DNA from: Diplolepis rosae
Lineage: Eukaryota; Arthropoda; Insecta; Hymenoptera; Diplolepididae
Assembly (NCBI GenBank): GCA_030998225.1
Contig: JAPYXD010000555.1
Coordinates: 310,001-374,000, forward strand
Direction: 5' to 3'
Length of the DNA: 64,000 nt
The position numbers and the translations under genes were made by a program. The notes beneath the pieces are model-generated. The model was not told where the DNA came from and ran no database searches. It saw nothing but the letters and a program-made list of their open reading frames with translations. Below, one piece after another: positions 21,259-39,490 of the stretch (position 1 is the first letter of the stretch; every line of letters starts with the position of its first letter).

Positions 21259-21406
21259 TGTCACGTCCCGCGACGCATTCGAATGTACTATAGGCACAGG
21301 CTAGGTCTAGAGAGAAATCTGGGGAAATTACTGAAAGAGAGAGAAAACCACCTATTGAAAAGAGAGGTATAACTACGTCACACGCAGCGGGAGGCTGCGC
21401 AACGCG

Positions 21407-21414
21407 TGACGTCA
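21407..21414 (+). promoter_or_regulatory. CRE-like site upstream of the LTR TATA box
   Basis: TGACGTCA, a perfect CREB/ATF palindrome, lies 13 bp before the TATA box. An upstream ACGTCACACGC (21375-21385) is its inverted partner, forming a GC-rich hairpin. The site is intact in both LTRs. Confidence 0.5.
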
Positions 21415-21427
21415 CCAAAAAATATAG

Positions 21428-21436
21428 TATAAAAAG
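21428..21436 (+). promoter_or_regulatory. TATA box of the LTR promoter
   Basis: TATAAAAAG, followed about 30 bp later by a plausible start region (GAGCAGTATT near 21460). The 3' LTR keeps the same box. Confidence 0.65.
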
Positions 21437-21650
21437 GACACACCGCCAAGGGAAAACTAGTCTTGTGAGCAGTATTTAAGTGCGGCATTTTCTAAAAAAC
21501 TAAAAGGGATTCTCAGCGTGAGACAATTATACCGTGCAGTTTGGCAGTGTAAAGACCCGAGAGTCATAAATTTACCGTGGTCCGTTTTTCAATCCTTGAA
21601 AGGATCTTAGACTCAGTGCCAAAAAGAGTGAATAGTTGTTGTGTCCTTGT

Positions 21651-21716
21651 CACACCTGTGGATATTCACTCCTTCGCAGTCACACCTGTGGGAATCGCAT
21701 CGCAGTCATACCTGTG
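21651..21716 (+). repeat. three CACACCTGTG-type repeats in the transcribed LTR
   Basis: CACACCTGTG at 21651-21660 and 21681-21690 and CATACCTGTG at 21707-21716, each containing an E-box (CACCTG or TACCTG) and preceded by GTCA/GT. The three copies are kept in the 3' LTR. They may be protein-binding sites; function unknown. Confidence 0.5.
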
Positions 21717-21801
21717 AGGAACATTTAAAGAAACAAAGGGAAATCATAAAGGTACCGAACTCTTCTCCCCCCCCCCCCCCCTCTCTCTCTCTCTCTCCCC
21801 C

Positions 21802-21854
<53 letters not shown>

Positions 21855-21940
21855 CTGTCTCTTTCCAACCAACCAGCCTGTGCCTCCAATTATAAATCAA
21901 TTGTATCGACAATTTAATATTTTCAATTTATAATTATTTT

Positions 21941-21946
21941 AATAAA
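21941..21946 (+). terminator. poly(A) signal in the 5' LTR, absent from the 3' LTR
   Basis: AATAAA within the segment of about 52 bp that is missing from the 3' LTR. The deletion endpoints share TCAATT, suggesting microhomology-mediated or slippage loss. Confidence 0.55.
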
Positions 21947-22052
21947 TTCAATTTTTATTATTTGATAATCATTGTGTCTTTTCATTGACTTATCCTCATC
22001 CGTAAGCGAGGATCATTCGATCCTAACTTAAAACGAGGAATCTTCGATCAAA

Positions 22053-22058
22053 GTAAGT
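22053..22058 (+). promoter_or_regulatory. strong splice donor in U5
   Basis: CAAA|GTAAGTAT in the last 30 bp of the LTR, upstream of the PBS. It is the best donor consensus in the leader and could feed all the acceptors found before the accessory frames. Confidence 0.55.
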
Positions 22059-22095
22059 ATTTACGTACTTGTGACGTAACATACTTCCTTTTTTC

Positions 22096-22113
22096 TGGTG
22101 CATCGGCCGGGAA
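22096..22113 (+). promoter_or_regulatory. primer-binding site complementary to tRNA-Gly
   Basis: TGGTGCATCGGCCGGGAA is the exact complement of the 3' end of an insect tRNA-Gly (acceptor stem and T arm plus CCA), 14 bp after the LTR. Confidence 0.8.
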
Positions 22114-22882
22114 ACACAAGTCAATTGAAATTGAACACATTGGTTCTTAATAATAAATAAATAAATAAATGATTATGAAATATTATTTCAACTTTAAAAC
22201 TTAAAATTTCAATAAAATAGATTTGTTAGATCACAAAGGGATCTGACCTTGAGGCTAACCTAAGTGATTAAGTAACTTATCTTATTTAAAAAGATATTCT
22301 AATTTGTTAACCAAGTTTTGATTTAAGTTAAAACAAACATAAAAAACAGAATATTTTTATTTGCAAAAAAAAAAAATTTGTCCAAAGATTTGCACTTAAG
22401 TTAACTTTTCCAATATAATAAAAATAATTTATGAATATTTCGAATGATCATTGTTATAAACAAATTTGTTTAATTGTTATAAACAATTTATAAATAAATA
22501 AAATAAATTATTTTGATTTTACATAAAGGGCACATGCAGTTGGTAAAGAAAAATATTTTATTATTTTAAGAAATTTATTATTAAAAATTATAAATTTACA
22601 AACAATTGAGCGATTATTTATTTAATTTGAATATTTGAAATAATTATATTTTTATATCATTATTTTATTTTCAAATGATGAAATAGAAATTTCATTTCAA
22701 ATTATATTGTTATTAAAAATAAGTAAACAAATTAAAAATAAATTTTACTAATCTCATTTTATTTTTCTTAAAAAACAAATTTTATATATAGTTTTTTTTA
22801 TTGTTATAAACAATTGAATAATTTAAAATAACAATAAACAATCAACGCTCAATACAAAATATTGTAAATTTATAATGACTCA
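22114..22882 (+). other. long AT-rich leader before gag
   Basis: About 770 bp without coding potential between the PBS and the gag ATG. Very A/T rich with runs of A; probably untranslated leader and packaging region. Confidence 0.5.
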
Positions 22883-24745
22883 ATGTCAAAACCAAATATC
22901 CCTTTAGAATCTACCCCGAAAGTTATAACACGTAGTCAAGCTAAACAAGATAGTCAGCTTGCAAAAATAGTAGATTTGAATCAAAAGGGTAATTTAAAAA
23001 TAAAACCAATTAGAAATAGAGAATATTCAACTGATAATAAATGCCAAAATATCCCTGATCCAATCCCTACAGAACAAGAATTAGATAACACTCTTAAGTT
23101 AGATGATTCAAGTTTAGACAAGACTCTAATTAATAATCAAAATATATCACGTGAAAATTCAGAAAAAACTAGCGGGTTTCATTCAAGTTTCTGTCCAGAT
23201 TTAAGCATTGTAACAGGATCCAGTAATCAAGATCAAACTCTAACGAATGAATTATCTTATTTTGACGAATTCAATTTGCTAAGCTCAACAGTAATAAGAG
23301 TAGATAATAAAACTTTGAAAGAAAGATTGGAAACCTCATTGGCACGCGAATCTATAATTAGTAACAACGATAGCGACGACGACAAAAGCGACACAGAAGC
23401 CATAAATCAGGATAATCCCGTAAGAGTAAATAACGAAGAGATGGCCGTGGTCATACCCAACAGCCAGCAGGTATCCTTACGCGACGCGCTAGAGGTGGTC
23501 CTATTGTTCGACGGAAGTAACCTCCCATTGTCACATTTTATTGAGGGTTGCATGGAGGCAAAGGCAATGCTACCGACACCTGCAGCTCAAGAAAACCTCG
23601 CAAGGCTATTAAGAGATAAATTAACTGGAGAAGCCAGAAAATGCATTTTTGGTTCTACTTATACAACAATAGAAGAATTGATAGAAAAATTGAAAAGAGT
23701 ATATGCCCCTGCGAAAAGCGTGTACCAGTTACAGGGAGAATTAGGTAATACATTTATGTGGGAAAGAGAAAATGTACTTTCCTATGCTGCTAGGATAAAA
23801 TAAATTGCCGACAAAATCGAAGATGCTCACAGGCTCAATAATAATGGTCAGGTAGATAATAATTTTAAAGTAAACCTTGAAAAAGACGTAATTCAATGTT
23901 TTATACGCGGTTTGCGTCCTGAGTTAGAAATTCGTGTTGAAGAAAAGGATACTTTTAAAGAAGTTATTAGCGACAGTATTGATATAGAACGAAGATTAGC
24001 TGCAAATTCCGCACTACGAAGAAATAAAAATATGGATTATTCAAAAAGTGACGAATCATCTAATAATAAAAATAATAAAACAACTCGATTTAACGTAGCA
24101 CTTGAAAACAAAACTATTTGTTTAATTTGTAAAAAATCAGGTCACACAACTGAAAAATTTTTTCATTTAAGTAAAGCTCAAGATGCAGTTTTTAATAATA
24201 AACAAAAAAATTTTTTGCGTCCTAACCAACAAGGATATAGTAATTTCAATGGTCAAAGAAGTAATAATAATAATACTTTTGCAAGAAACAATTACAATAA
24301 TTTTCCGAATAACAATTTTTTAAGAAATAAAAATTATAATTTTAATAACAACAACAATAATAATTTGCAAAATAGAAATAATAATTATAAAAACAATAAT
24401 AATAATGTTTTACAACAAAGATACAACAATAATAATAATTTTCCTCGAAATTTTTACAATAATAACAATAATGTTAATAATAATAATAGACAATGGAATC
24501 CAGGACAGTATCAAAACTTTAACTTAGGACAGTCTCAAAATCGAAAAAAACCATATGAATATAGGTTTTTACAAAATAATAATAATCAAAAAAATTCAAA
24601 TTATACTGAAGTAGTTTGCAATTATTGTAAAAAACCCGGTCATTTAGTACGAGACTGCAAGATACGACCAAATAGCCAATCACAAACAGCTCATCAGGAA
24701 AACTCCAAAGCTCTCCCCAGGACGGGTGCACTGAGGAAAGCATAA
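22883..24745 (+). pseudogene. gag of the LTR element, one in-frame stop
   Basis: The frame begins MSKPNIPLES and is open for 620 codons apart from one TAA at 23801-23803, inside the capsid-like region. An N-terminal ITRSQAK motif is followed by an acidic linker and a Ty3/gypsy-type capsid region (about 23480-23950; FDGSNLP, ARLLRDKLTGEA). A long Asn-rich tract (about 24250-24500) separates two zinc knuckles. The first (24119) has lost its last Cys (Phe instead). The second (24617-24658) is a perfect CX2CX4HX4C. pol overlaps the end in the -1 frame. The stop could be a real mutation or a sequencing error. Confidence 0.88.
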
Positions 24746-27700
24746 ATCGAGAAGCACTGGCATCCACTTCTAACGATCATACAACAACAACAATAAATAT
24801 TTCAAAGTCCACTTCAATTCCATCAATTATAATATCAACGGAAGGTTTAAAAAATCCAACACACATGATGATTGATACTGGTGCTGCTCGAAATTTAATT
24901 AAACAAAAGGTTCTCAACCCTGAAGTACCAATAAATAGGCATAACGTATTGAAACTTACAGGAATTAATGATTTACCACTTTACACGTTAGGACAGGTAA
25001 AAATAAACATTTTTGGTTATCCAACGATATTTAACATTATTCCGAATGAAGTCCCAGTAGAAGAAGATGGAGTATTAGGATCAGAATTTTTTCAAGATAA
25101 TAGTGTGAATATAAACTATACTTCAAAATGCTTAGAAATTGAGAACCACTGTTACCCTTTTAAATCTACCAATACATTTACTATTCCAGCTCGAACAGTT
25201 ACAACATTTTATGTTAATATAAAAAATACAGAAAAGAGTGAAGGGTATGTACCTCGATTACATATCCAAGATGGCGTCTACGTAGGTGACGCAGTTGTAA
25301 AAAATCACAGAGGAAAAGCTTATTTAAAATTTGCAAACACAAATGAAATCCCAATTACATTATCCGTCCCATTAGTTAATTTAGAAGACTTTGAAGAACA
25401 AGAATGCTATAAACAAATTGAAAATTTAATTAATTTCAAACAAACAAATAACGAAGATTTATCAAGTAAAATATTAAATAACTTTTTAAAAACTGACAAT
25501 TCTCTAATTAACTCATGCAAATTTTATAATGTAACAGACGAAGACAGAGTAGAATGTATTAAAAAACTTCTTCGATTAGACCATTTAAATCAAGATGAAT
25601 ATGAACATGTAGAAAAATTAATTAAAAATAATGCAGACAGATTTCAAATCCCAGGAGAACCACTTGAAGCTACTAATGTATTACAACATTCAATTCCAAC
25701 TGTAGATGACGCTCCAATTTTTCAAGACAATATAGATTTCCCCCAGTTCACAAGGAAGAAATTACAAGACAAGTCGATGAATTATTAAAAAATAAAATAA
25801 TCAAGCCCTCACAATCACCATATAACACTCCAGTGTGGATAGTTCCTAAAAAACCTGATTCTCAAGGAAAAATAAAATGGAGAATGGTTCTTGATTTTCG
25901 TAAATTAAATGAAAAAACAATTGGCGATTCGTATCCTTTACCTAATATAAACGATATACTTGATTCTTTAGGATCAGCAAAATATTTTTCAGTGTTTGAT
26001 TTAGCTACCGGTTTTCACCATATAAAAATGAACCCAAAAGACTCACATAAAACCGCATTTTCTACACCTCACGGTCATTACGAATTCGATAGAATGCCTT
26101 TCGGTTTGAAAACAGCACCCGCCACATTTCAAAGATTAATGGATTTAACATTAACTGGATTAATCGGAACAGAACTTTTTGTATATCTTGATGACATAGT
26201 TATATATGCAAATACTCTAGAAGGAACACGAAATTAAATTCAACAATTTAGTAGAAAGACTTAGAAAAGCAAATCTTCATTTACAACCAGACAAATGCGA
26301 ATTTTTACGACCTGAAGTAGGATATTTAGGTCATATAATTGATAAAAATGGAGTACGTCCAGATCCAAAAAAGATAATAGCTGTAAAAAACTTTCCAGTC
26401 CCAAAAACACAGAAAAATGTTAAACAATTTTTAGGCTTAGCAGGATATTATAGACGATTTATTGATGGATTTTCAAAAATTTCAAGTCCTTTAAATCAAC
26501 TTCTGAAAAAAGATACACCTTTTAATTGGACAGAAAAACAACAAGCAGCTTTCGAAATTTTAAAAGCAAAATTATGTGAAGAACCACTTTTACAACGACC
26601 TGATTTTTCTCAACCTTTTATACTCACAACAGATGCCTCAGGATTTGCAATAGGAGGTATTTTATCACAAGGTAAAATAGGTAAAGATAAGCCAATAGCA
26701 TATGCTTCACGTAGTCTAAGTGATACTGAGAAAAAATATGATACATATGAGAAAGAAGCTCTTGCTATAATATTTTGTGTAACTCATTTTCGTCCTTATT
26801 TGTATGGGAGAAAATTTACTTTAGTGACTGATCACAAACCTCTAGTTTGGTTTCAAAATTCTAAAGACCCTTGTTCACGAGTTTCACGTTGGAGATTGAA
26901 ACTCACAGAATATGATTTTGATGTAATTTACAAAGCAGGAAAAATGAATGTAAATGCAGACGCTCTCTCAAGAAACCCTATTGATGATAACAAAGAGAAA
27001 TCAAGATATTTACAAGTTGACGCCAATGATACTTTTATGACTTCCCAAGAAAAAATGTTTTCCAAGAAAACTTTTACAAGAAAAAAACAAGAAAACTCTA
27101 AAAATGAGGTAAAACCTTCAAAACGAAGAAACTTGAATCCAGAAATCATACCAGACGACGTAGATCATTTTAGCGAAATTCCGGAAGCCCAAATATTAAA
27201 TATTGACTCAAAAATTCCAGAATATTTTCCGGAATTCCTTAGTGAAGAATCATTCAGTGAGATTGGTAAGAATATTTTAAAATACACAAATTTATTCAAA
27301 AATATGGCTTCAAGACTTATTTTTATGACAATATTTTTATTAAGTCCAGTGTTTTCCAAAAAATACGAAAATTTATCATGGAAAACTATTACTACGAGAG
27401 CTCAAAAAGAGAATAGAGCAAGAAAAAGCAAAAAATTTGAATCGAAACGAAACTCAAGAAAAATTAGACGAAAATTTTTCTTCTAAACCTCTTATGAAAA
27501 AACCACGAGGTAGGCCAAGAAAAAATCTACTTACAAATTTGAAAAATATTCCCTCTCAAACAAAAAGAAAGAGAGGTAGGCCAAGAAAACAAATGTTTGA
27601 AAATGAATTACCAGAAATAAATGTGCAAAAGGGAAGCCGAACAAAAGTAGAATCAGATTCCGACTCTGATCCTGATTATTTAGATTATTTGAAACAAACT

Positions 27701-29653
27701 CAAGCAAAAAATAAAAAGAAGAAGAATGCCAAGAAGCCAAAAAATATTAATGAATTTGAAAGTGAAGAAAGTGAGAATTATTTTTCAACCTCAGAAGATG
27801 AAATCAACGACATTGAAACCTCACACGAAGGAAATGATGGAGAAAATTATGAAGAAAATTGGGAAGAGAATTTTGAAGATGATCTTGAAGACGATTTTGA
27901 AAAGAATTTCGAACAGAATTTTGAAGAAAATTTTGAAGACAATCTTGAGGAAAATTTTGAAGAGAAGTTTGAAGAAAACCAAGAAGAAAAATTGGAAGAA
28001 GAATTTGAAGAGCTTTATTTTGAAGAAAATTTGAGATTAAACCGAAGATCTCAAATAAATCCTGAAAAAATCGATAAAGATCATGATAATTATAATCGTC
28101 CTCCCCCAGAACCTCCTCCTATAAACTCTCAAACAGAAAAAATTATAACAAAGAAAAAAATTATAACAAAGAAAAATTTAGTTGAATGTCGCGATCAATT
28201 AACTATGCGAAAAGATAATTATGCATATTTTGTTACAACAAATGGAACTCCTCGCGACAACGGATCAAAAACTTTAGAAAAACGTGGAACTTTACCAAAA
28301 TTTAAAAATTTACAAAAGGAGATAGCAAAAGAGATTAAAAAAGGAAACTACTACCATTTTGCACTTCCAATTGAAGAAGAAACTAAAGATAATTTATCTG
28401 AAACTTTAAATAATATAAAATTATCAATTCATTCATTACATGAATTATCTCAAAAATTTAAATTACGATCTATTAGTATATCAAAAACTTCCAGAATTAA
28501 TCATATACCTTGGGAAGAAGTGAAATCAATTTTCGATTCAATTTTTTCAAATTCAACTACAAAAATTATAGTTTGCAATGGAATAACGCAATATCCAACA
28601 AAGGAACAACGAACTCATTTAATTGAAGAAGCTCATTCTTCAGCATTAGGAGGCCATAAAGGCGTTACAAAAACTTATAGCCGAATTCGCCAAAAATTTT
28701 TTTGGGAAAATATGAAAGTAGACATTCAAAAATATATTCAAGGCTGTTTACAATGTCAACTGAAAAAATTAATCAGAGTCAAAACAAAAAACCCTATGGT
28801 AATCACTGACACACCCACTACTGCTTTTGAAAAAATATCAATGGACATTGTTGGTCCACTACCTGAAACAAAATCTGGTAACTTATATATTCTAACGATA
28901 CAAGACAATTTTACCAAATATTCTTTAGCAATACCTCTTCCTAATCACCAAGCTAGTACGATAGCAGATGCTTTCGTGAAAAAATTTATTTGCATATTTG
29001 GATCACCGAAAGGAGTACTTACTGACCAAGGCAGAGATTTTTTAAGTAATTTATTAAAAAGATTGGCAAAACGTTTTAGAATTAAACAATTTCGTACCAC
29101 AGCATTTCACCCTCAATCAAACGGGTCATTAGAACATTCACATCATGTTTTAGGAGAATATCTCAAACAATTTGTTACAAAAAATTCAGAATGGGATGAT
29201 TGGCTTGAACTAGCAATGTTCTCATATAATACTAGTGTACATGAAGGCACAAAATGCACACCCTAGGAATTGGTTTTTGGTAAACTAGCTCGTGAACCTT
29301 CCAGTGAACCTTTATCACAACAAGAAAAATTACAAATATATGACGATTATTTAATTAATTTCGTAACACAACTACATGAAATGCGAACACAAGCAAGAGA
29401 AAATCTTATTTCAGCAAAAGAAAAATCGAAATTATATTATGACAAAAAAATAAGTCTTTTAGAAGTAAAAATTGGAGATTACGTGTTTTTATTAAAAGGA
29501 GGAAAAATTAAAAAACTTGACAGCCATTATACAGGGCCTTATGAAATATTGGAAGTGTTAGGAAAAGGGAATGTCAAAATAAGCTATAAAGGCAAACCTA
29601 CTGTTGTCCACATTAATAGACTAGAACGCTCACATATGCAAGTACAAAAGTAA
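24676..29653 (+). pseudogene. pol of the LTR element (PR-RT-RNase H-linker-IN) with frameshifts and a stop
   Basis: The open frame begins 70 bp before the gag stop, in -1, so frameshifting is expected. Protease has IDTGA (near 24868). RT spans about 25740-26330 with FVYLDDIV (near 26180). RNase H has TTDAS, EKEA and TDHK (26620-26830), and NADALSR follows. Integrase has an HHCC finger (about 28617-28760), then D (MDIVGP), D (TDQGRDF), E (GSLEHSH) and a GPY/F module (near 29540). Lesions: one shift in a C run at 25740-25745, a compensating shift near 26223, a shift in 27344-27486, and TAG at 29264. The RNase H-to-IN linker is about 540 codons, with two AT-hook motifs (RGRPRK) and a Glu/Asn/Phe acidic repeat, far longer than in typical gypsy elements. 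Confidence 0.9.
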
Positions 29654-29891
29654 ATAAATAAAAATAGAAACAAAATATCTGTACCTTAATTATAAAAAAA
29701 TATATATATATTTATATATATACATATACAACTTAAATAAGATATAGAAATTTTATTTTGTCGATAAATAGTAAAAATATAAAAAATAAAATTTTTTTTT
29801 TATGAAAATATATGTTTTATATATAAAATAAAAAAATATATAAAACAAAATAAAAATGAATTTTCAGACATAACACATTATTCCAGATATA
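29654..29891 (+). other. AT-rich spacer between pol and the accessory block
   Basis: No frame. Runs of TATATA and poly-A, then the acceptor ACACATTATTCCAG ending at 29886. Confidence 0.5.
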
Positions 29892-30173
29892 ATGGAACAA
29901 ATTCATCGCAAACGCATAGATGATCTCATTGAAATAGTTCCCTGTTTTATCGACATGGTAGCTCTCTGGCCATACTTAATTCAAACTGGAATTTTTAAGA
30001 AAGACGACTGTAATATCCCCACATGGAACAGAAATCTAAACAATCCAGAAATAATAAAAGACATTTTTTCAACAATCAAAACAAGAGGACCGGACGCATA
30101 CAAAAATTTAATTCTCAGTTTACGGCTATCAAATCACATTGTCATAGCCGACATGTTGGATATAATGAACTAG
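29892..30173 (+). CDS. CARD-like death-fold protein (93 aa) in the LTR element
   Basis: Small intact frame from an ATG 5 nt after a splice acceptor. The whole protein fits a six-helix caspase-recruitment domain. It has an N-terminal helix with RKRIDDLIEIV, then LWPYLIQTGIFKKDD, then DIFSTIKTRGPDAYKNLI and SLRLSNHIVIADML; the RGP-A-Y---L--SLR--------A--L ending is the typical CARD helix 5/6 pattern. CARDs assemble apoptosome and inflammasome complexes by homotypic contact. A lone CARD in a virus-like element would be expected to act as a decoy for a Dronc/Dark-type interaction, but that is inference. No other domain, signal peptide or membrane segment is present. Confidence 0.72.
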   Translation: MEQIHRKRIDDLIEIVPCFIDMVALWPYLIQTGIFKKDDCNIPTWNRNLNNPEIIKDIFSTIKTRGPDAYKNLILSLRLSNHIVIADMLDIMN

Positions 30174-30288
30174 GAACGCAAAATACAAAAAGTAAATCAA
30201 TAACTTCAAAAATATACATATGTAATGATAAAACATTTTCCTATTCTTATATTACAAAGCAAGCTGCTAATTGGAACCCCCTTTTTCC

Positions 30289-30292
30289 AGAG
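30289..30292 (+). promoter_or_regulatory. splice acceptor of the glycoprotein frame
   Basis: ACCCCCTTTTTCCAG ends at 30290, two bases before the ATG at 30293, and decides this start over the longer upstream extension of the same frame, which overlaps the CARD gene. Confidence 0.6.
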
Positions 30293-32323
30293 ATGGGATT
30301 ACGAGGCTTCCTTTTGACACTGCTCACTTGCAACTTCATCTATATAACAACAGTCTACGCCATCATAGGATTCGATTGCGGTTCAAATCAATCAAATATT
30401 ACGACATTATCTTTACTAGAGGTAGGAGAATGTGATCTACCTCGATCTCAAGTACATGTTGAAAGAACTTATATACAACTTTTACAATTAACTGGATTTT
30501 CAAATACAAAAGTAATACAATGCAAAATAGAAATTCGACGCGCTATCTCTCATTGTGGTATGCATTCTCACAGTTCCATAGTAGCAAATGGCCACAGTGA
30601 ATATATACATGATGTTACACGAGATCAATGTAATCAAATGCACACAATAGGAACATTTTTAGTAACCCCTTCTCTTCAGATATCAAAGTTAAAAGTAAAC
30701 GAAACTTCATTTCATAGCGTTACTTTAGCAGGTTCTGTAACACCTAACGGAGACTGTACTGGTACACAATTTTCTGACCCATATGGAACATGGAATAATG
30801 TCGTAGTCGAAGCAATATTTAAAATAACTTTACAAGAACATTACGCGACTATTCATTTAAATTCAAATAAAATTCAATTAGGATCTGGAATAATATGCAC
30901 ACTTTCAGACACATTCTGTACAGACGTAGAATATGGACAAACATTCTGGGATACATTACCTAATGACGTATGTAATTTTAACAAATATGAAATTATTTAT
31001 GAAGGACCAGCAAATAAAACATATGACAACACGACAGACAATTCTGAAACCTTTTATTCTTTAACGACTGAAGATATAACCTTCGTACTGACTGAAAAAA
31101 CAAGAAAACTAGTTTGCAGTTACGTTTTAATACAAACTGAGCATCCAAAATTATTAATTTTTGAAACCAGACCTGGGAATTCATTTTTAGAAAATAAACA
31201 TTTAGAAGTTCAAAATATGGACATTTTCACATACGTCAATTCTAAATTTATATATGTAGAACGACACATACGCACTGAAGTAAATAGACTTTATCACGAT
31301 GTTCTTACTCAACGATGCATACTTGAACAGCAAGTTTTTAGAAATACATTAACCTTAGCAACCCAATCACCAGACGAATTTGCATATCATTTAATGAAAG
31401 GCCCAGGATATATGTCAGTAATTGCAGGAGAAGTAGTACATATCGTAAAATGTATACCGGTTGAAGTAAAATATCGCAAAACTGAAGAATGTTATCTACA
31501 ACTACCAATATTTAGAGGAAATCAATCCTTTTTCCTTTCTCCACGAACTCATATATTAACAAAATCAGGTATCCAAACAAATTGCAATTCTTTCCTTCCA
31601 CCAATGTACCTTTTTGGAGAAACCTGGTACAAATTACTTCCAAATCCTGTCGAATCCATAGCACCAACTATAGTGAAACCTCTCACAAAAGCAACCTGGA
31701 AATACACAAATCCTTCATCCTTAGCAACAAGTGGCATTTATTCTCAATCTGATCTTGATAAACTGCGAGATCATATTATGTTTCTAGCAGAAAAACCAAT
31801 GATTCTAAATTCTTTAGCTAGAGAAATAACAGGACATCCAACTATTAATCAAGGAATATCATTAACGAATTTATTTAATGAAGATGTAATTGATAAAATT
31901 GCTGAATCCGCATGGGGTAGATTTTGGACAATTTTTACAAGTTTTGGAACTACTAGTGCAGGCCTAATTGGATTAATAATAATAATTAGAGGGATTAAAT
32001 TGATAGCTGATACCATTATTCATGGATATGCGCTACACAGATTATTTGGATGGTCTCTCCATCTACTAGGCGCCTTCTGGGATTCGGTCACTAACCTCTT
32101 ATTACACTTAGGTACCCATCGACCTTCTGGACCTCCTGCTGAGAGTCATCAAGAACTGCTAACAGCTTCAGCGCCACAAAGCTCAAAAGAGGCACCTAAA
32201 AGTCCTTGGTATTACGCAAATACTACTTCCGGTAAAGATCACAATAATACAAACACAACTCTTTATCCTCACTCTGAACTAAAAGAAGAACTTAGTAGAA
32301 CCCAGTACTCTATCCAAATCTAA
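30293..32323 (+). CDS. chuvirus-type (mononegaviral) envelope glycoprotein, 676 aa
   Basis: Intact frame. An N-terminal signal peptide (MGLRGFLLTLL to about residue 23, ending VYA) is followed at once by a mature start with FDCGSNQSNITTLSLL. The ectodomain has many N-glycosylation sites and paired Cys. Conserved-looking segments include CGMHSHSS, DPYGTWNNVVV, FTYVNSKFIYVE and FAYHLMKGPGYMSVIAGEV. A transmembrane stretch lies around residues 550-575 (SAGLIGLIIIIRGIKLI), followed by a second hydrophobic stretch and a polar tail. This pattern is that of the glycoprotein of chuviruses (order Jingchuvirales), copies of which are integrated in insect genomes, some within LTR elements. It differs completely from the F-type envelope usual in errantiviruses. 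The start is fixed by the acceptor at 30290. Confidence 0.82.
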   Translation: MGLRGFLLTLLTCNFIYITTVYAIIGFDCGSNQSNITTLSLLEVGECDLPRSQVHVERTYIQLLQLTGFSNTKVIQCKIEIRRAISHCGMHSHSSIVANGHSEYIHDVTRDQCNQMHTIGTFLVTPSLQISKLKVNETSFHSVTLAGSVTPNGDCTGTQFSDPYGTWNNVVVEAIFKITLQEHYATIHLNSNKIQLGSGIICTLSDTFCTDVEYGQTFWDTLPNDVCNFNKYEIIYEGPANKTYDNTTDNSETFYSLTTEDITFVLTEKTRKLVCSYVLIQTEHPKLLIFETRPGNSFLENKHLEVQNMDIFTYVNSKFIYVERHIRTEVNRLYHDVLTQRCILEQQVFRNTLTLATQSPDEFAYHLMKGPGYMSVIAGEVVHIVKCIPVEVKYRKTEECYLQLPIFRGNQSFFLSPRTHILTKSGIQTNCNSFLPPMYLFGETWYKLLPNPVESIAPTIVKPLTKATWKYTNPSSLATSGIYSQSDLDKLRDHIMFLAEKPMILNSLAREITGHPTINQGISLTNLFNEDVIDKIAESAWGRFWTIFTSFGTTSAGLIGLIIIIRGIKLIADTIIHGYALHRLFGWSLHLLGAFWDSVTNLLLHLGTHRPSGPPAESHQELLTASAPQSSKEAPKSPWYYANTTSGKDHNNTNTTLYPHSELKEELSRTQYSIQI

Positions 32324-32333
32324 CATCTTCAGA

Positions 32334-33070
32334 ATGTCGCATGTTCCTTTTACAACCTTACTAAACAAAATTATTCAACAAAGAGGAGATCCACCCCTCA
32401 TTTATGAGATACTCATTGAACAAACCAATAATAATGAATGTCTATTTCACGTTAATTTACAATATAAAAATTATATAATAATGAATAGTGGCAAAGATAA
32501 AGAAAATGTAAAGCAAAAGGTAGCACAAAATTTATATAATGCCTTAATTAATGAATCAAAGGAAACAAATCAAAACGTCCAACCAAACTCTATTAGTAAA
32601 AATTGCAAAAAATTAAACGAAATTTGCACTGAAAATAAATTTGAGTATCCAAAATATACAGTATTACGAATAAAAACCTCATCAAAAGACTCAACATACA
32701 TAGCAATTTGTTTCATTAATAACATTAACAAATAGGAATAGCAAACTCAATAAAAACAGCTAAGGATTTTGCTGCCATAAAAGTTATTAATTCTCTTTCA
32801 CATAAAGACGAGAAATGTGAACTACGTTTGATAAACTCACTAGAACATTTGCATGTAACAATTCAAGAATCATCTATAAACGATCCAAAACCTTCAACGA
32901 GTAGCCAAGTAACAAAACCTATTACTTCAAATAACAATCGTGATAAAAATACAAATTCATGTAAAATGAAAACAAATAATAATCATACTGCATCATCTTT
33001 CTCTACGAAAAGCTTTAAAAAATGTTTTAAATGCGGATATAGACCTCCCAACCAGTACAATAAATTCTAA
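32334..33070 (+). pseudogene. dsRNA-binding protein unit A (two dsRBDs), frameshifted
   Basis: The ATG follows an acceptor (TAACATCTTCAG) by one base, ten bases after the glycoprotein stop. Residues 8-75 fit a dsRBD: LLNKIIQQRGDPPLIYE, a beta sheet, then NVKQKVAQNLYNAL. A second dsRBD starts near residue 92 (NEICTENKFEYPKYTV). Its last helix (IKTAKDFAAIKVINSL) continues in another frame after a shift at about 32725-32736. The shifted part ends with a Ser/Asn-rich linker and a lone CFKC, half of a zinc knuckle, before a stop at 33070. Predicted role: dsRNA binding, perhaps shielding from RNA interference; inference only. Confidence 0.68.
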
Positions 33071-33107
33071 TATAAACATTCCATACCGATTCAGGAAATC
33101 AACTGCA

Positions 33108-33692
33108 ATGGAGCATTACTACGACGAGCCTACACACGTACCAAGTTACCCAAAAAAGAAATACAGAACAGACTCCATGGGATTTTTAAATCATGTAGAA
33201 ATTTTAAGAAACTTCACGATAAAATATGGACTGCCGTTACCGCAATATACAGTCTATCCTGATCCGAATTCGAAAACAAACTCATTTTTTCTCGCACAAA
33301 TTAATATAAATGAACATTTCGTTATACAAGCCGGCCCTACTAGTGAATTAGCAGAAAATAGAGCAGCTTTAAAATTATTATTACTATTAATAAGATCATA
33401 CGATCTCTGCGACGAAAAATTTTATAATAATGATGATAAAAAAAGGCAAAAAACCAAAAATCAAAGTATTCAAACCGATCCAAGATCAAAATTAATACCT
33501 TGGGAAAATTCCTGTAGATTTTGTAACACTCAAATGCATGCTACAAAAGAGTGCCGTAGACGAAATATTTTTAAAGTAGACAAATCAACCCAATTTCCCC
33601 CTCCAGTTCCACCAAGAAACTCCTCAACATTTAGTAGACTTTTTTCCCCTTTTCTCCAAAAAACTTCTAGACCTAAATCCAACCATATGTAA
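33108..33692 (+). CDS. dsRNA-binding domain plus zinc knuckle protein, unit B (194 aa)
   Basis: Intact frame, ATG 13 nt after an acceptor (ATACCGATTCAG). Residues about 27-95 form an alpha-beta-beta-beta-alpha dsRBD pattern: HVEILRNFTIKYGLPLPQYTV, FFLAQININEHFVIQAG, then ELAENRAALKLLLLL. The basic KKxAK loop typical of strong dsRNA binders is absent. A classical CX2CX4HX4C knuckle follows (CRFCNTQMHATKEC, about residues 136-149), with a basic cluster after it and a proline-rich tail (PPPVPPR). The dsRBD-knuckle order is shared with unit C, so the units look like diverged duplicates. Confidence 0.72.
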   Translation: MEHYYDEPTHVPSYPKKKYRTDSMGFLNHVEILRNFTIKYGLPLPQYTVYPDPNSKTNSFFLAQININEHFVIQAGPTSELAENRAALKLLLLLIRSYDLCDEKFYNNDDKKRQKTKNQSIQTDPRSKLIPWENSCRFCNTQMHATKECRRRNIFKVDKSTQFPPPVPPRNSSTFSRLFSPFLQKTSRPKSNHM

Positions 33693-33733
33693 ACATCCTA
33701 TTTTATCCAATATTAATCCTACTTTTCTTTTTC

Positions 33734-33735
33734 AG
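33734..33735 (+). promoter_or_regulatory. splice acceptor before the F-like envelope
   Basis: CTACTTTTCTTTTTCAG is the strongest pyrimidine tract in the block, 16 nt before the ATG at 33752. Confidence 0.6.
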
Positions 33736-33751
33736 CCTTCCGAGAAGCCTA

Positions 33752-35533
33752 ATGAATTTCCTTAATCAACTAGCATCCAGAGTGTATTTAATTTTAATTC
33801 CACTCATTTTCTCCAAAGCAGAAAAATACTTCATAGACTCACAATTTTCTCATTCTTCAGGGATTTATTTTGAACCAATTTCAAAAGTTCGTCTTTTTTC
33901 TGAAAAATATCATTTTATATCTTATATCGATTTTTTTCAGCCAGACGTACTTAAATACAAAATAATAGATTTCTCACATAAATTATATGAATATTGCATA
34001 CTCTCAAATATTGCCAATAATTGTAATTTATACGATCATCAGACACAACTTGATTTTATAGAACAACGCATCAACTATTTTCTTGAAGAAATATCATTTA
34101 TATCTAGACAAGCTCTTAATATCACGAATATTTCTAACACTAATGATCCATTCTTGCAACAGATACAAAAAGTACTTTTAGAATTAAGAATGAGAAATGA
34201 AACCTCCCTTTACTGGCCCAAAGAAAATTTATTTCTACTTCCTAATCCATTTTTCCAAAAAGTTACAAATCTTTCTTCAAAACTTGACAACATTATGACC
34301 TACAAAAAATGGCATAATTCTCAAAAAGATCCAAATATTCACCTATATCGAATATTAGCAGCAAATTGGCTTAAAGACCTGCATGAAATTTCTCAATCTT
34401 TTCTTTTACTCCTTGACCAACTTACAGAAGCTATTACCCATGCCGCAACTAATTTATGGCACCCTATGCTACTTCCTGATACCTTCTTAGACTTCAAATC
34501 CAACAAAGAAGACCCACACCTTTCAACATCCCTTTTTTCCATGGTCCTTCCATTTTCTAAAATACAATACTTCTTATTCAATAAGTACTTGATTTTTATT
34601 ATGACTATACCAATCCCATCTGCTGAAGAATTTCAATTATTTAAACCACATCCAATTCCAATACATCTCGATTTTAATACTGACGTAATTTCCTCTATTT
34701 ACATAAAACCTCAAAATTCTTATCTCGCTATTTCTTCAAATAACCAATCATACTTTATAACAAATGAAAATTTCCTCAATGCATGTTATCAAAATGGATT
34801 CCAAACATTTTGTCACCCACCAAGATCTATATCTAACATCGATAACAATCCTATTTGTGAAACATCAATGTTTCTAAATTCAGAACCATACAAGTGTAAA
34901 ATATTCATCAGTTTTAGTGAATATCCCTTTCTAACACCATTGCAATTTCATCATGGATTGCTATACTCAACAATTTTTCCCCGACAAATTTTCTTATCAT
35001 GTCGAAAAAACTCTAAGACCTTAATCACACTCCAAGGAATAGGAATTTTGCAAACAAAATCAGGTTGCAATCTAGATTCATCAACTCCATATTACCATCT
35101 TCAAAACCATTTGAATATAATGGATAATTCAATTCCAGTCAGCAAATCAACTACTTCCCTTGCTATAATTTCACCATTTTTATATAGTATTTCCATTCAA
35201 GAGCCTCACTTACTAAAAAAGGTATTACTTCTTCTTCAGCAAAAAGAAGACATGCCATTATCAATCTTCGAAAACCATGTCTTTATCCTTACAAAATATG
35301 CAAACATTCAAAAAATCATTCCATCAATTTTTATTTCTAGTGCACATAAATTAACATTAGCACTAATCTTTATCACTTTACTTATGATTACAATTTTAGG
35401 ATTATTACTATTGAAAATTCAAAAAATATCTAAAAAAATAAACAAAACGCCAACACGTATAGAACTTATACAAAAAACTCCTTTAAGCTCAGTGACAAAA
35501 CCTTTACTGACCGACTTGACGTTTAACTTTTGA
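33752..35533 (+). CDS. second envelope, F-like (baculovirus F / errantivirus Env type), 593 aa
   Basis: Intact frame. An N-terminal hydrophobic stretch (VYLILIPLIFSKA, residues about 11-23) can act as a signal peptide and is followed by GIYFEPISKVRLFSEKYHFISYIDF, the family's typical opening. A Cys pair (CILSNIANNC) and a heptad-rich segment follow. The middle has IPIPSAEEFQLFKPHPIP, as in F/Env ectodomains, and several spaced Cys. A single transmembrane helix (about residues 533-558) and a basic tail end the protein. I see no furin motif before a fusion peptide, which fusogenic members have, so it may be an uncleaved form. Identification rests on layout and short motifs, so it is less certain than the chuvirus-type protein. 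Confidence 0.65.
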   Translation: MNFLNQLASRVYLILIPLIFSKAEKYFIDSQFSHSSGIYFEPISKVRLFSEKYHFISYIDFFQPDVLKYKIIDFSHKLYEYCILSNIANNCNLYDHQTQLDFIEQRINYFLEEISFISRQALNITNISNTNDPFLQQIQKVLLELRMRNETSLYWPKENLFLLPNPFFQKVTNLSSKLDNIMTYKKWHNSQKDPNIHLYRILAANWLKDLHEISQSFLLLLDQLTEAITHAATNLWHPMLLPDTFLDFKSNKEDPHLSTSLFSMVLPFSKIQYFLFNKYLIFIMTIPIPSAEEFQLFKPHPIPIHLDFNTDVISSIYIKPQNSYLAISSNNQSYFITNENFLNACYQNGFQTFCHPPRSISNIDNNPICETSMFLNSEPYKCKIFISFSEYPFLTPLQFHHGLLYSTIFPRQIFLSCRKNSKTLITLQGIGILQTKSGCNLDSSTPYYHLQNHLNIMDNSIPVSKSTTSLAIISPFLYSISIQEPHLLKKVLLLLQQKEDMPLSIFENHVFILTKYANIQKIIPSIFISSAHKLTLALIFITLLMITILGLLLLKIQKISKKINKTPTRIELIQKTPLSSVTKPLLTDLTFNF

Positions 35534-35870
35534 CCTTTCCTTTATTCCATCTTTCACCCTTTTCTTTAATAGACTTGAAGTCAATTCACAAAATTTTTCA
35601 GATACAGGTACATTCCGTCCTTACCTTTCTCAAAACCACATGCATGAACGACCTATACCGTCAGAAGGACAGTTTTTGTACCCACGTCTTTAATGTTTCT
35701 TACTAAAGGAAAAACAAACTGTAATATAAAAGTTGTTTTTCTGACGGAAAGTAAAATACTTTTAGCAAAATCTTTTACCTTGCATGATTAGAAAATATAT
35801 TCAAAAAGTTATTTTTCAATCTCCTTATCAGACCTTAATAAAATAAATCTATTCTAACAATTTGTAGAAA
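35534..35870 (+). other. spacer before the Cys-rich frames
   Basis: No frame. It ends in a branch-point-like TTCTAAC and the acceptor AACAATTTGTAG at 35867, three bases before the next ATG. Confidence 0.5.
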
Positions 35871-36278
35871 ATGATACCAACTCCAAGTGAACCTATTGTT
35901 AACCATCTTGGACCAGTAGACGGTGTATGTCCGCAAGACTATCCGATAGCATACGCGCACTTATTACAGAGTTATTGCTTCGAATTAGAACCTTCAACAT
36001 TGTTTTTATATTATAATCACCAAACCACAAAAAGATATTGCCAATTCTGTTTCGAGAAATTAGATGAGGAAACTCAAAATAACTGTGAATTTTTTACATC
36101 ATGGCATTCCATTTGTAAATTGGAATGCATATATATGAATTGTTACGGTTGTCAAGAACTATTAATTACTCCGCGAAAAAGAGCAGCTGATTGTAGAGAA
36201 TGTATCGAACAATATTTAAATTATAAATTCGAAATTAGTCAAGGAAACGAAGTTCTAGTAGAAAATACCCCTGCATGA
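35871..36278 (+). CDS. Cys-rich small protein 1 (135 aa), unknown
   Basis: Intact frame with 11 Cys. Three CX2C pairs (residues 57/60, 91/94, 108/111) plus Cys 72, 82 and 86 suggest two zinc sites of a RING- or LIM-like cross-brace, with WHS between them. A basic PRKR lies between pairs 2 and 3. No signal peptide or membrane segment. I do not recognise the family. The acceptor directly before the ATG and its place in the accessory block argue that it is a real gene. Confidence 0.6.
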   Translation: MIPTPSEPIVNHLGPVDGVCPQDYPIAYAHLLQSYCFELEPSTLFLYYNHQTTKRYCQFCFEKLDEETQNNCEFFTSWHSICKLECIYMNCYGCQELLITPRKRAADCRECIEQYLNYKFEISQGNEVLVENTPA

Positions 36279-36417
36279 TTATACGTATCTACCTTCCACG
36301 CATGTAATCACGCATGAAAAATTTTGTTAAATTTAATAAAATCCTTAATACTAAAAAATTTTAAATTTTGCAAATATTTCAAATTCCTTAAATATTGTAA
36401 ATTTCCCCAACAGAAAA

Positions 36418-36657
36418 ATGCTGCCCCAAGAAATCGAAACAATCGAAGCAGAAGAAGTTCGAGCAAGCGAGCAGGATGTTCAGCCGTATTTTGAAAATCA
36501 ATTATGGTCAGAATACTGCTGCACAACCCTGGTCGAGAATTTTTACATGAATGTTCTCGAAAAAAAACTTGTTTGCGAGGATTGTTGGATGACAGAACTC
36601 AGCTTTTTCGAAACCGAAGTAACATTACCCGTCCGAATAGACCTACTTCTTCCTTAA
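36418..36657 (+). CDS. Cys-rich small protein 2 (79 aa), unknown
   Basis: Short intact frame, ATG 4 nt after the acceptor ATTTCCCCAACAG. Acidic N-terminus (EIETIEAEEVRASE), then CC at 34-35 and CX2C at 53/56 (VCEDCW), and a hydrophobic C-terminal end. It may be half of a zinc site shared with protein 1 or a truncated relative. No family recognised. Confidence 0.5.
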   Translation: MLPQEIETIEAEEVRASEQDVQPYFENQLWSEYCCTTLVENFYMNVLEKKLVCEDCWMTELSFFETEVTLPVRIDLLLP

Positions 36658-36871
36658 CCGCTATAATGTAACGACAAACCTTAATAAATTAAAATATTCT
36701 TTAAAACGGACCACTGTTTTCTCTGCATGGAATATCTCTTTGAGTTAGGAAACGCGGAAAGTGAATATATCAACAAACACAAAATTATTACAAAAAAAAC
36801 TAACTAACTTTAGAATTTCAATAAATTCAATCATCAACTCAAACAGGTAATTCTTTTGCAGATCAAAAACA
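36658..36871 (+). other. spacer before dsRBD unit C
   Basis: Non-coding. Contains AATAAAT-like motifs and the acceptor GGTAATTCTTTTGCAG ending at 36861, ten bases before the ATG of unit C. Confidence 0.45.
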
Positions 36872-37268
36872 ATGGCCTTGCAGACAAGAGACCTATCGAA
36901 AGGCACTGCTGTACAAGTTTTAAACGAGATAAGCATTGAGTATGATTTCTCCGAACCTTCATATATTGTAAAATCGCTTGGAAAACACCAAGAACTGCCA
37001 CCGTTCCAAGCAACTTGCGAAATCTTTAAAAATAAAATAACTTTCTCTTGTATTGGGGAACCAGCCCCTCAAAAAAAGTCTGCAAAGCAAAATGTAGCAT
37101 CTAAACTCTTGGAAATGCTTTCCACAAGATACGTATTTTTAGAAGAAATGAAAGAAAAAAGCTTAAAAAAAATGGACCAACTCTTGTGAAAGGTGTTTTC
37201 AAAGAGGGCATTTAGCTCATAACTGCCGCAACCCTTTACGTAATAGAAAATATAAAAATAATTCTTAA
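36872..37268 (+). pseudogene. dsRNA-binding domain plus zinc knuckle protein, unit C, frameshifted
   Basis: Residues about 13-85 fit a dsRBD: AVQVLNEISIEYDFSEPSYIV, a beta sheet, then PQKKSAKQNVASKLLEML. The latter contains the KKxAK pattern that contacts the dsRNA phosphates, so this is the clearest dsRBD of the three. The first frame stops at 37187-37189. In the next frame a perfect CX2CX4HX4C knuckle (CERCFQRGHLAHNC, 37185-37226) and a basic tail run to 37268. A one-base indel in the A-rich run at about 37160-37175 explains the break. The dsRBD-then-knuckle order equals unit B. Confidence 0.7.
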
Positions 37269-37716
37269 AAATCTACATTATGAAATTACGTTTTATATTA
37301 CAGTTTTATATATTATTATTTTATATTACCTGAAATTTATAATTTACGAATATGAAATAAAAATTATTGATGTATTTAGTTATATAAGAAAAAATCACAT
37401 GTAACCTTATGTTAAGTTCAAAAACAAAACTATGTAATTATTTATAACAAAAAAATTATAATTAGTTGAGTTTGAAATTTTTGTTAAAAATTATAATATT
37501 TAGATAACATAAATTTTTATGAGATCCAAAAAAAAAATGTTCGATATTGGCATCAAATAGTCAAATGCAAAAAATACAAATTGTAAAAGAAACGCCGAAA
37601 TGAATGTTGGTTATTACGTCAGAAATAGAAATTCAATGTATCTTCAAAAACATTAACGAATGTATTCTTCTTCCGAAGATTCGATCGCGGATGCTTCACC
37701 CCCGCGCTCGAACTAC
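37269..37716 (+). other. non-coding 3' region of the LTR element
   Basis: AT-rich, no frame, then a GC-rich stretch just before the polypurine tract. Confidence 0.5.
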
Positions 37717-37725
37717 GGGGGGAGG
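37717..37725 (+). promoter_or_regulatory. polypurine tract
   Basis: GGGGGGAGG immediately before the TGTCACG start of the 3' LTR; it primes plus-strand DNA synthesis in LTR elements. Confidence 0.75.
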
Positions 37726-38237
37726 TGTCACGTCCCGCGACGCATTCGAATGTACTATAGGCACAGGCTAGGTCTAGAGAGAAATCTGGGGAAATTACTA
37801 AAAGAGAGAGAAAACCACCTATTGAAAAGAGAGGTATAACTACATCACACGCAGCGGGAGACTGCGCAACGCGTGACGTCACCAAAAAATATAATATAAA
37901 AAGGACAAACCGCCAAGGGAAAACTAGTCTTGTGAGCAGTATTTAAGTGCGGCATTTTCTAAAAAACTAAAAGGGATTCTCAGCGTGAGACAATTATACC
38001 GTGCAGTTTGACAGTGTAAAGACCCGAGAGTCATAAATTTACCGTGGTCCGTTTTTCAATCCTTGAAAGGATCTTAGACTCAGTGCCAAAAAGAGTGAAT
38101 AGTTGTTGTGTCCTTGTCACACCTGTGGATATTCACTCCTTCGCAGTCACACCTGTGGGAATCGCATCGCAGTCATACCTGTGAGGAACATTTAAAGAAA
38201 CAAAGGGAAATCATAAAGGTACCGAACTCTTCTCTCC

Positions 38238-38282
<45 letters not shown>

Positions 38283-38458
38283 CTGTCTCTTTCCAACCAA
38301 CCAGCCTGTGCCTCCAATTATAAATCAATTTTTATTATTTGATAATCATTGTGTCTTTTCATTGACTTATCCTCATCCCTAAGCGAGGATCATTCGATCC
38401 TAACTTAAAACGAGGAATCTTCGATCAAAGTAAGTATTTACGTACTTGTGACGTAACA
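37726..38458 (+). repeat. 3' LTR (733 bp)
   Basis: Same ends as the 5' LTR and the same CRE, TATA, E-box repeats and U5 donor. Shorter CT/TA microsatellite, and the segment of about 52 bp with AATAAA is missing. Followed by TATATATA, consistent with the TATA target duplication. Confidence 0.93.
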
Positions 38459-39490
38459 TATATATAGAAATATATAGATTTTGTGATAATTGTGATGAAA
38501 TAAGACCGTATTTATGGTCGTATTTACGACCGTCTATAAGAAACCGTACTTATGGTTATATTTACGGCCTTATTTCAAACCTGTATAAGAAACCGTATTC
38601 ACGCCCAGAAATATGTGCATACAATGTTTTCCTAGTTTCTATCGCTAAAAAATAGAATTATTGTATTTATTCCTACATCTTCTAATTCAGATTTGATCGC
38701 AGAATTATAATTTCAATGACGAATGTTTTTTTACCCTTCTTATTCATAATATTGCAAGTTTAGTGAATGGCCAGTGTATTTGCTGACCGTTTACTAAACC
38801 GGGTCCGCATATATACATACTCATTTGGTGGTAAAAATACGCGTAATTTCTAATAATTATTATTAATTATTTTCATTGTTCCTCATCGCTTGACGAGAAA
38901 CATCCAGGTGCATTATTGCCACCATGCTGTCACCAAACCGGTAAGCATAATATCCCGTGTAGAAATTTCGATAGGGGCCTAGAGGGGCCCTGACGAGTTA
39001 GCCCTATTTCTAATCGGAATCTAGCGTGGAAAACTAGTCAAGGCCCCATCGGTAACGTAACACTTTTGTCGAGGTGGGCCCCACTAGACTTTTTAGTAGG
39101 GGTTTAGTGAGGTCAGCCCTTACACTACCCCACCTACGAAAAATGAGACCACTAGGGCTCTATTGGATCTCCGCATTGTATTTAAGGGCATATTTCAGCA
39201 GAGTCACGTGACCAATTTTGTTCAGGTATCTCACTGAAAAAATAATAAATAAAAAGGTTTTTCCACACTGAGAGAAACAGTACAGGGAAAATTCTAGTTA
39301 AGGCTATAATATTTGAGCCGTTCTATAGAAAAACGCCTGAAGTCGATTGAGGTCATTTTTAAAATTTATGAATTATTACATTGTTGCGCGTCTATAATAT
39401 GTGTTTATGAAGTTTCAAGCAACGTGAACAAATGGATAAGCTTATATACACTCAGCTAGAAGTCAGTTCGCGGCGACCCGAGCGCGCGCG
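38459..39490. repeat. non-coding intron DNA with a diverged fold-back element fragment
   Basis: About 38625-38815 resembles 8030-8200, the outer part of the fold-back element (shared ATTATTGTATTTATT, CATCTTCTAAT, GACCGTTTACT and GGTCCGC). Before it, 38500-38600 has several short ACCGTAYTTATGG / TACGACCGT inverted motifs. The rest, to 39490, has no gene. Confidence 0.55.

What the first reader, a model, noticed from the sequence alone, without database searches (positions are those of the whole stretch)
21259..38458. A 17.2-kb complex insect endogenous retrovirus with a large multi-gene accessory block
Beyond gag-pol, an errantivirus-like Ty3/gypsy element carries a CARD-like protein, a chuvirus-type glycoprotein, an F-like envelope, three dsRBD/zinc-knuckle units and two Cys-rich proteins between pol and the 3' LTR. 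Seen directly: matching LTRs, PBS, polypurine tract, TATA flanks and the reading frames. Known: gypsy-class insect elements normally have at most one envelope gene. Inference: this is an insect analogue of a complex retrovirus.
Basis: partly seen in the sequence, partly recalled or inferred. Interest (0 to 1): 0.96.

Follow-up and report, generated by a model that had tools for sequence, protein, structure and literature searches.

The report
Insect retrovirus-like element with accessory genes
This is a 17-kilobase retrovirus-like element in what is probably an insect genome that carries, besides the usual virus genes, two unrelated envelope proteins, a cell-death-adaptor-like protein and three double-stranded-RNA-binding proteins, suggesting that invertebrate retroelements can be as gene-rich as complex vertebrate retroviruses.

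Summary
Window 21259-38458 is one LTR element: LTRs of 823 and 733 nt (13 mismatches in 732 aligned positions), TATA flanks, a PBS fitting tRNA-Gly, a purine tract, gag, and Ty3/gypsy-order pol. Between pol and the 3' LTR lie a CARD-like ORF, a chuvirus-type fusion glycoprotein (PF24664, E 8.9e-247), a two-dsRBD gene (frame-broken here; an uninterrupted 245-aa homologue exists), a dsRBD plus CCHC-knuckle ORF, a Baculo_F envelope (E 6.7e-21), two Cys-containing ORFs and a fourth dsRBD. Most of the block belongs to a family: of 112 homologous database proteins, 25 span two or more genes, linking pol-CARD, CARD-glycoprotein, glycoprotein-dsRBD, dsRBD-F and CARD-79-aa ORF. The 135-aa ORF and last dsRBD were not searched. 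This copy's gag-pol is broken. Best mechanism, inferred: an env-bearing metavirus spreading with a class III fusogen; its dsRBD proteins (nearest solved structures Loquacious, R2D2 and TRBP, weak matches) blunt RNA silencing; its Dronc-like CARD decoys caspase activation. Full-length copies, host and RT phylogeny were not tested; genome search did not complete. New variant of a known kind.

The parts
21259..22081 (+). 5' LTR (TG...CA; TATA-like GTATAAAAAGG; splice-donor-like AAGTAAGTA at 22051)
22096..22113 (+). primer-binding site, 18 of 18 to the complement of the recalled tRNA-Gly(GCC) 3' end, 14 nt after the LTR
22868..24745 (+). gag region: two same-frame stretches split by an in-frame stop (22868-23803, 23804-24745), CCHC knuckle
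24676..29653 (+). pol region: protease-like, RT, RNase H, long spacer, integrase; several frame changes and an in-frame stop in this copy
26914..28597 (+). about 560-codon RNase H-to-integrase spacer with two GRPRK AT-hook-like motifs and an acidic stretch (crosses a frame change)
   Evidence: bounds computed from the Pfam matches; motifs; AT_hook E 0.093, below cut-off
29892..30173 (+). CARD-like protein, 93 aa
   Evidence: PF00619 E 0.018 here (below cut-off), best family member 1.3e-5, 23 of 34 members at E<=0.1; 52 homologues
30293..32323 (+). chuvirus-type fusion glycoprotein, 676 aa from the ATG that follows a splice-acceptor-like site (open frame from 30014)
   Evidence: PF24664 E 8.9e-247; signal/TM-like segments; acceptor-like site at 30291
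32334..33070 (+). dsA: two-dsRBD gene, frame-broken in this copy (ORF 32334-32735, then 32729-33070); uninterrupted homologues exist
33108..33692 (+). dsB: dsRBD + CCHC zinc knuckle protein, 194 aa
   Evidence: dsrm 20.8 bits, cut-off 23; 48 homologues; PDB best match TRBP 0.013; knuckle read by eye
33752..35533 (+). F-like envelope, 593 aa, one C-terminal TM-like segment
   Evidence: PF12259 E 6.7e-21
35871..36278 (+). Cys-rich ORF, 135 aa, no known family; presence in other copies not tested
36418..36657 (+). 79-aa ORF with Cys pairs; linked to the CARD in one database protein (P0094)
36872..37189 (+). single-dsRBD protein, 105 aa, with a KKSAK motif; presence in other copies not tested
   Evidence: PF00035 E 1.6e-5; PDB DCL1 dsRBD 0.0035
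37717..37725 (+). polypurine tract next to the 3' LTR
37726..38458 (+). 3' LTR

Best explanation
The locus is a decayed provirus of a multi-copy, env-bearing Ty3/gypsy-class (Metaviridae) element that has become 'complex'. SHOWN: LTR structure, gag-pol domain order, two unrelated envelope genes, a CARD-like ORF and three dsRBD genes within one pair of LTRs, and most of the same genes linked in other copies. INFERRED: genomic RNA is made from the LTR and primed by tRNA-Gly. Downstream genes are expressed from spliced mRNAs, from a donor-like site in the LTR to acceptor-like sites just before the glycoprotein, F and 135-aa ORFs. The chuvirus-type glycoprotein is the main fusogen for cell-to-cell or soma-to-germline spread; the F-like protein is the older env. 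The two-dsRBD, dsRBD-knuckle and small dsRBD proteins bind viral dsRNA and/or mimic Dicer partners (R2D2/Loquacious type) to blunt siRNA silencing. The small CARD protein, lacking a caspase domain, competes for Dark-Dronc type CARD contacts and keeps the infected cell alive.
For: LTRs, PBS, PPT. Domains. Families: 48 homologues of dsB, 52 of the CARD, 15 rows for the P0040 query of which 12 were new. Linkage tally over these 112: pol-CARD 3, CARD-GP 3, CARD-dsB 1, CARD-79-aa ORF 1, GP-dsB 1, dsA-dsB 8, dsB-F 7, dsA-dsB-F 1, single gene 87; none mapped to the window outside the element. CARD query covered 100% by 32 of 52 homologues; 24 of 52 are exactly 93 aa. The Dronc CARD is one of 3 PDB hits of the CARD profile (E 0.79, profile 3-87, with matching RGP.AY..LI..LR). 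Loquacious 0.0077 and R2D2 0.012 are the top PDB hits of the uninterrupted dsA homologue P0105; TRBP isoforms or fragments are all 5 hits of dsB. Acceptor-like sites lie within 60 nt upstream of 3 of 8 start codons, null mean 0.66, P 0.013 (the rule was chosen after looking).
Against: No other full-length copy, expression data, structure model or host identity was obtained. The CARD match of this copy is below Pfam's cut-off; 11 of 34 family members miss even E 0.1, and the diverged homologue P0089 has no match. The two better PDB hits of the CARD profile (2.1e-4 and 0.013, entries named C3HR3) look like designed repeat proteins; the Dronc hit at 0.79 is not significant alone. The PDB matches of dsA are weak, bacterial RNase III also appears (0.37-0.64), P0040 shows no dsrm match and the profile of the dsB family (A2) found nothing in the PDB. 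By eye, the dsB dsRBD lacks the basic helix-2 motif seen in the small dsRBD. F found no PDB match and the glycoprotein only chance-level ones, so the envelope assignments rest on Pfam. The 135-aa ORF and last dsRBD have no evidence outside this window.
Confidence: 0.6

Rival explanations
1. Same element, but the dsRBD and knuckle proteins are RNA cargo factors (Staufen-like transport, packaging or translation of the element's RNA into the germline), not silencing suppressors, and the CARD is a multimerisation module.
For: dsB combines a dsRBD with a CCHC knuckle (by eye); its dsRBD lacks the basic KKxAK-type motif (by eye), as protein-binding dsRBDs do (recalled); the second Pfam match for dsA and the small dsRBD, below cut-off, is the Dead-end-1 dsRBD.
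Against: The best PDB matches of dsA and dsB are Dicer partners, though weak; three separate dsRBD genes seem more than packaging needs (opinion).
Confidence: 0.28
2. Composite locus: a plain gypsy element into which host genes or another virus's fragments were inserted later.
For: Envelope and dsRBD genes have different origins; an AT-rich gap precedes the block (GC 0.113 at 29654-29891).
Against: Other copies link most of the same genes. No exact repeat of 13 nt or more, direct or inverted, between 29640-29900 and 37180-37726. The repeats of 30 nt or more in 20500-39500 are the LTRs, AT-rich or simple sequence and a 32-nt repeat in the pol spacer.
Confidence: 0.07
3. A refinement of the main reading: the F-like protein has become a non-fusogenic passenger after gain of a class III fusogen, as in Group I baculoviruses.
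For: A chuvirus-type glycoprotein coexists with the F protein; the window's F protein has no R..R, K..R or R..K motif; Group I F-like proteins lack the furin site and GP64 does the fusion (PMC4864199, passages).
Against: Shuffled sequences lack these motifs in 16% of 2000 cases, and R..R alone in 82%. Of 8 F-bearing database pieces 7 were examined, and 2 of them (P0039, P0107) carry a minimal R-x-x-R motif in F-derived sequence, so loss is not shown to be a family trait.
Confidence: 0.25

Closest known systems
Errantiviruses / insect endogenous retroviruses (env-F Ty3/gypsy elements; PMC12992720, passages seen)
   Same: LTR-gag-pol-env plan and Baculo_F-type env
   Different: 17.2 kb; second unrelated envelope; CARD-like, dsRBD and Cys-rich genes; tRNA-Gly PBS, CCHC Gag and TG..CA LTR ends (contrast with the genus recalled)
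Anakin (mosquito BEL-Pao element with chuvirus-like glycoprotein; Dezordi 2020, PMC7642597, passages seen)
   Same: chuvirus-type glycoprotein inside the LTR boundaries
   Different: F env and accessory genes in addition; the passages seen describe Anakin as BEL-Pao canonical structure plus the glycoprotein. That pol here is not BEL-Pao was not tested by a tree
gypsy elements with type III fusion glycoproteins (PMC13172572, passages seen; Chary and Hayashi 2025 not held)
   Same: gypsy element with a type III glycoprotein
   Different: the passages seen mention GAG, POL and ENV only
Complex vertebrate retroviruses (lentivirus, deltaretrovirus, spumavirus; recalled)
   Same: several small accessory ORFs around env, probably expressed by splicing (inferred here)
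   Different: accessory genes of other kinds; Metaviridae-type pol
Loquacious / R2D2 / TRBP family
   Same: tandem dsRBDs; best, weak PDB matches of dsA and dsB
   Different: encoded by a retroelement, shorter, knuckle in dsB, strongly diverged

Membership tests
Metaviridae (Ty3/gypsy) | gag with protease-RT-RNase H-integrase order inside LTRs | tested here: met
   protease match weak (0.022); this order is shared with BEL-Pao
Metaviridae (Ty3/gypsy) | RT phylogenetic placement | not tested
   no reference RT set at hand
Errantivirus | Baculo_F-type env | tested here: met
   PF12259 E 6.7e-21
Errantivirus | tRNA-Lys or tRNA-Ser primer, Gag without CCHC, AGT-type LTR ends (all recalled hallmarks) | tested here: not met
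   PBS fits tRNA-Gly, recalled; zf-CCHC 8.6e-5; TG..CA ends
Anakin (BEL-Pao) | BEL-Pao pol | tested here: inconclusive
   Pfam scan of the pol pieces listed only general RT/RNaseH/IN models; no tree built
Complex retrovirus (by analogy) | several accessory genes beyond gag-pol-env kept across copies | tested here: met
   CARD, dsA, dsB in many copies and linked; 135-aa ORF and last dsRBD not searched
Complex retrovirus (by analogy) | accessory proteins regulate expression or defeat host defence | not testable with these tools
   needs expression and assays
CARD (PF00619) | profile match above curated cut-off | tested here: inconclusive
   window copy 15.5 against 23.9 bits; 23 of 34 members at E<=0.1, best 1.3e-5; 1 of 52 homologues has the domain precomputed
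dsRBD (PF00035) | profile match above curated cut-off | tested here: met
   dsA ORF 31.6 and last dsRBD 25.8 bits against 23; dsB below at 20.8; uninterrupted dsA homologue P0105 43.3 bits, 2 stretches
Monjiviricetes fusion glycoprotein (PF24664) | full-length profile match | tested here: met
   profile 5-649 of 653, 820.7 bits

The most novel reading that the evidence does not exclude
An insect lineage of complex retroviruses that captured a Dicer-partner-like dsRBD set and a caspase-adaptor CARD as dedicated antagonists of RNA silencing and apoptosis, and that uses two unrelated envelope proteins, invading germlines against siRNA/piRNA defence.
Probability: 0.35. Interest if true: 0.93.

Novelty: new variant of a known kind. 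Interest (0 to 1): 0.8.

Why it matters
Small-RNA control of env-bearing gypsy elements is a long arms race in insects (PMC13172572, passages); retroelement-encoded silencing suppressors would be an expected counter-move (my view), and this family offers concrete candidates. It also adds a Ty3/gypsy-type element with a chuvirus glycoprotein beside an F envelope, bearing on how non-retroviral glycoproteins spread in arthropod genomes: a 2023 survey found no clear gypsy capture (PMC10084718, passages; it names one glycoprotein within complete transposon boundaries of an unclassified element in Bemisia tabaci and one Anakin), while a 2026 paper mentions gypsy elements with type III glycoproteins (PMC13172572, passages).

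Tried and rejected
Nested insertion was tested by repeat search and linkage and is disfavoured. Troyka was considered and rejected: it has CG..CG ends and 3-bp TSDs (PMC12440569, abstract, introduction and start of methods). Loss of the F furin motif as a family trait was considered and not upheld. A programmed frameshift in dsA was considered and rejected: homologues such as P0103-P0106 read straight through. Relatives in viral contigs (5 scans) and genome contigs (2 scans): none confirmed. Rfam at gathering scores: no match; tRNA scan of the window: none. Searches for earlier reports of such an element: on the open-access library; none of the listings (titles and abstract beginnings) showed one. 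The most relevant study I know of (Chary and Hayashi 2025, eLife 108449) is not held and nothing of it was seen, so 'not in print' is not claimed.
Full report
Observation. The element spans 21259-38458, 17,200 nt. Its LTRs are 823 and 733 nt with TG...CA ends and differ at 13 of 732 aligned positions (11 transitions, 2 transversions; K2P 0.018), plus gaps of 1, 39 and 51 columns. TATA flanks both ends, inside an AT repeat. A site 14 nt after the 5' LTR matches 18 of 18 bases of the complement of the insect tRNA-Gly(GCC) 3' end, which I recalled rather than looked up. A nine-base purine run abuts the 3' LTR.

Gag-pol. Pfam finds a CCHC knuckle in gag, a sub-threshold aspartyl protease match around a visible DTGA motif, RVT_1, RNase H, integrase zinc finger and rve, in Ty3/gypsy order. 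The frames fall into seven overlapping or adjoining stretches with in-frame stops in gag and integrase and several frame changes in pol, so this copy is unlikely to make a full Gag-Pol. Between RNase H and integrase lie about 1.68 kb with two GRPRK motifs and an acidic stretch; the AT-hook profile match is below cut-off (0.093).

Accessory block. In order: a CARD-like 93-aa ORF; a glycoprotein matching PF24664 over profile positions 5-649 of 653; a two-dsRBD gene (dsA); a dsRBD plus CCHC gene (dsB); a Baculo_F protein; two Cys-containing ORFs; and a single-dsRBD protein. In the window, dsA is broken between ORFs 32334-32735 and 32729-33070, but a database cluster of 9 members, P0105, carries the whole 245-aa protein with two dsRBD stretches (dsrm 5.7e-11). 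Among the element's own dsRBDs, pairwise BLASTP gave the small dsRBD against dsA's second (2.9e-4), against dsB's (5e-4) and against dsA's first (0.14), and nothing for the other three pairs (E-values for single-sequence comparisons). That is compatible with duplication but weak.

Is it a family? Protein searches gave 48 homologues of dsB, 52 of the CARD and 15 rows for P0040, 12 of them new, all labelled 'ena' without names; none is marked as the window's own. Mapping all 112 back to the window, 25 span two or more genes and 87 one: pol-CARD 3, CARD-GP 3, CARD-dsB 1, CARD-79-aa ORF 1, GP-dsB 1, dsA-dsB 8, dsB-F 7, dsA-dsB-F 1. Several skip intervening genes, as internal deletions would; such joins need the genes to lie in the same element in those copies, unless the assembly is chimeric. 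None mapped outside 21259-38458. Of the 52 CARD homologues, 32 cover the whole query and 24 are exactly 93 aa. The 135-aa ORF and the last dsRBD were not used as queries, so their presence in other copies is untested; the 79-aa ORF has one link. No exact direct or inverted repeat of 13 nt or more joins 29640-29900 with 37180-37726.

CARD. The window copy scores 15.5 bits (cut-off 23.9). Of 34 aligned members (33 of the 52 homologues, chosen for coverage, plus the window), 23 match PF00619 at E<=0.1, best 1.3e-5, and 11 do not. A profile search of the PDB listed 3 sequences: two entries named C3HR3, apparently designed repeat proteins (2.1e-4 and 0.013, short repeat matches), and the Dronc CARD over nearly its full length (0.79), with the RGP.AY..LI..LR core aligned. 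I take CARD as likely, not proven.

dsRBDs. Best PDB matches of P0105 are Loquacious (0.0077) and R2D2 (0.012), with TRBP and bacterial RNase III further down among 13; of dsB, five TRBP sequences (best 0.013); of the small dsRBD, the plant Dicer-like 1 dsRBD (0.0035). The family profile of dsB found nothing, and P0040 has no dsrm match. All are weak and say only that Dicer-partner dsRBDs are nearest among solved structures.

Envelopes. The glycoprotein has signal- and TM-like segments and starts 2 nt after an acceptor-like site; it has only chance-level PDB matches. 'Class III' follows from published use for Chuviridae glycoproteins (PMC13172572, passages). The F-like protein has one C-terminal TM-like segment and no PDB match. 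The window's F lacks any R..R/K..R/R..K motif, but 16% of shuffles lack them too (R..R alone 82%), and 2 of the 7 F-bearing database pieces examined (of 8) carry a minimal motif in F-derived sequence. The tempting parallel to Group I baculoviruses, where F lost fusion beside GP64 (PMC4864199, passages), therefore stays open.

Expression. Donor-like AAGTAAGTA sits in each LTR. Acceptor-like sites lie 2, 16 and 39 nt before the glycoprotein, F and 135-aa ORF starts: 3 of 8 genes within 60 nt, null mean 0.66, P 0.013 (the rule was chosen after seeing the list, and the other 5 genes have none). This suggests spliced subgenomic mRNAs.

Known relatives. Anakin is a BEL-Pao element with a chuvirus-like glycoprotein (PMC7642597, passages). 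A 2023 survey saw gypsy fragments near such glycoproteins in Hymenoptera and Coleoptera but no clear gypsy capture; it names one glycoprotein within complete boundaries of an unclassified element in Bemisia tabaci (PMC10084718, passages). [quoted passage not shown] Insect ERVs are described as having a third ORF for an F-type envelope (PMC12992720, passages). I found no report of the CARD or dsRBD genes in nine listings, but the main survey of envelope-carrying retrotransposons (eLife 108449) is not held.

Limits. Host, copy number, RT phylogeny, selection and expression are untested; 'insect' is inferred from the element types.

Noticed in passing
26914-28597: Long RNase H-to-integrase spacer with two GRPRK AT-hook-like motifs and an acidic, repetitive stretch; possibly a targeting or tethering module.
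   Followed up: partly
40114-40569 (+), 42152-42886 (-): Mariner-type transposase fragments (PF01359) beside the element.
   Followed up: no
46083-47111 (-), 48910-49479 (-): A second Ty3/gypsy-like remnant (RNase H; weak zinc knuckle, E 0.018) on the other strand.
   Followed up: no
57569-59866 (+): 766-codon open frame with a tnp2-type Transposase_21 match (E 9.5e-8).
   Followed up: no
5632-8209: Large inverted repeats of 91-94% identity with nested copies, perhaps a foldback element or satellite.
   Followed up: no
P0089 (database protein): A CARD-ORF homologue at only 58% identity whose longest contig is 12,245 bases, suggesting a diverged sister family.
   Followed up: no
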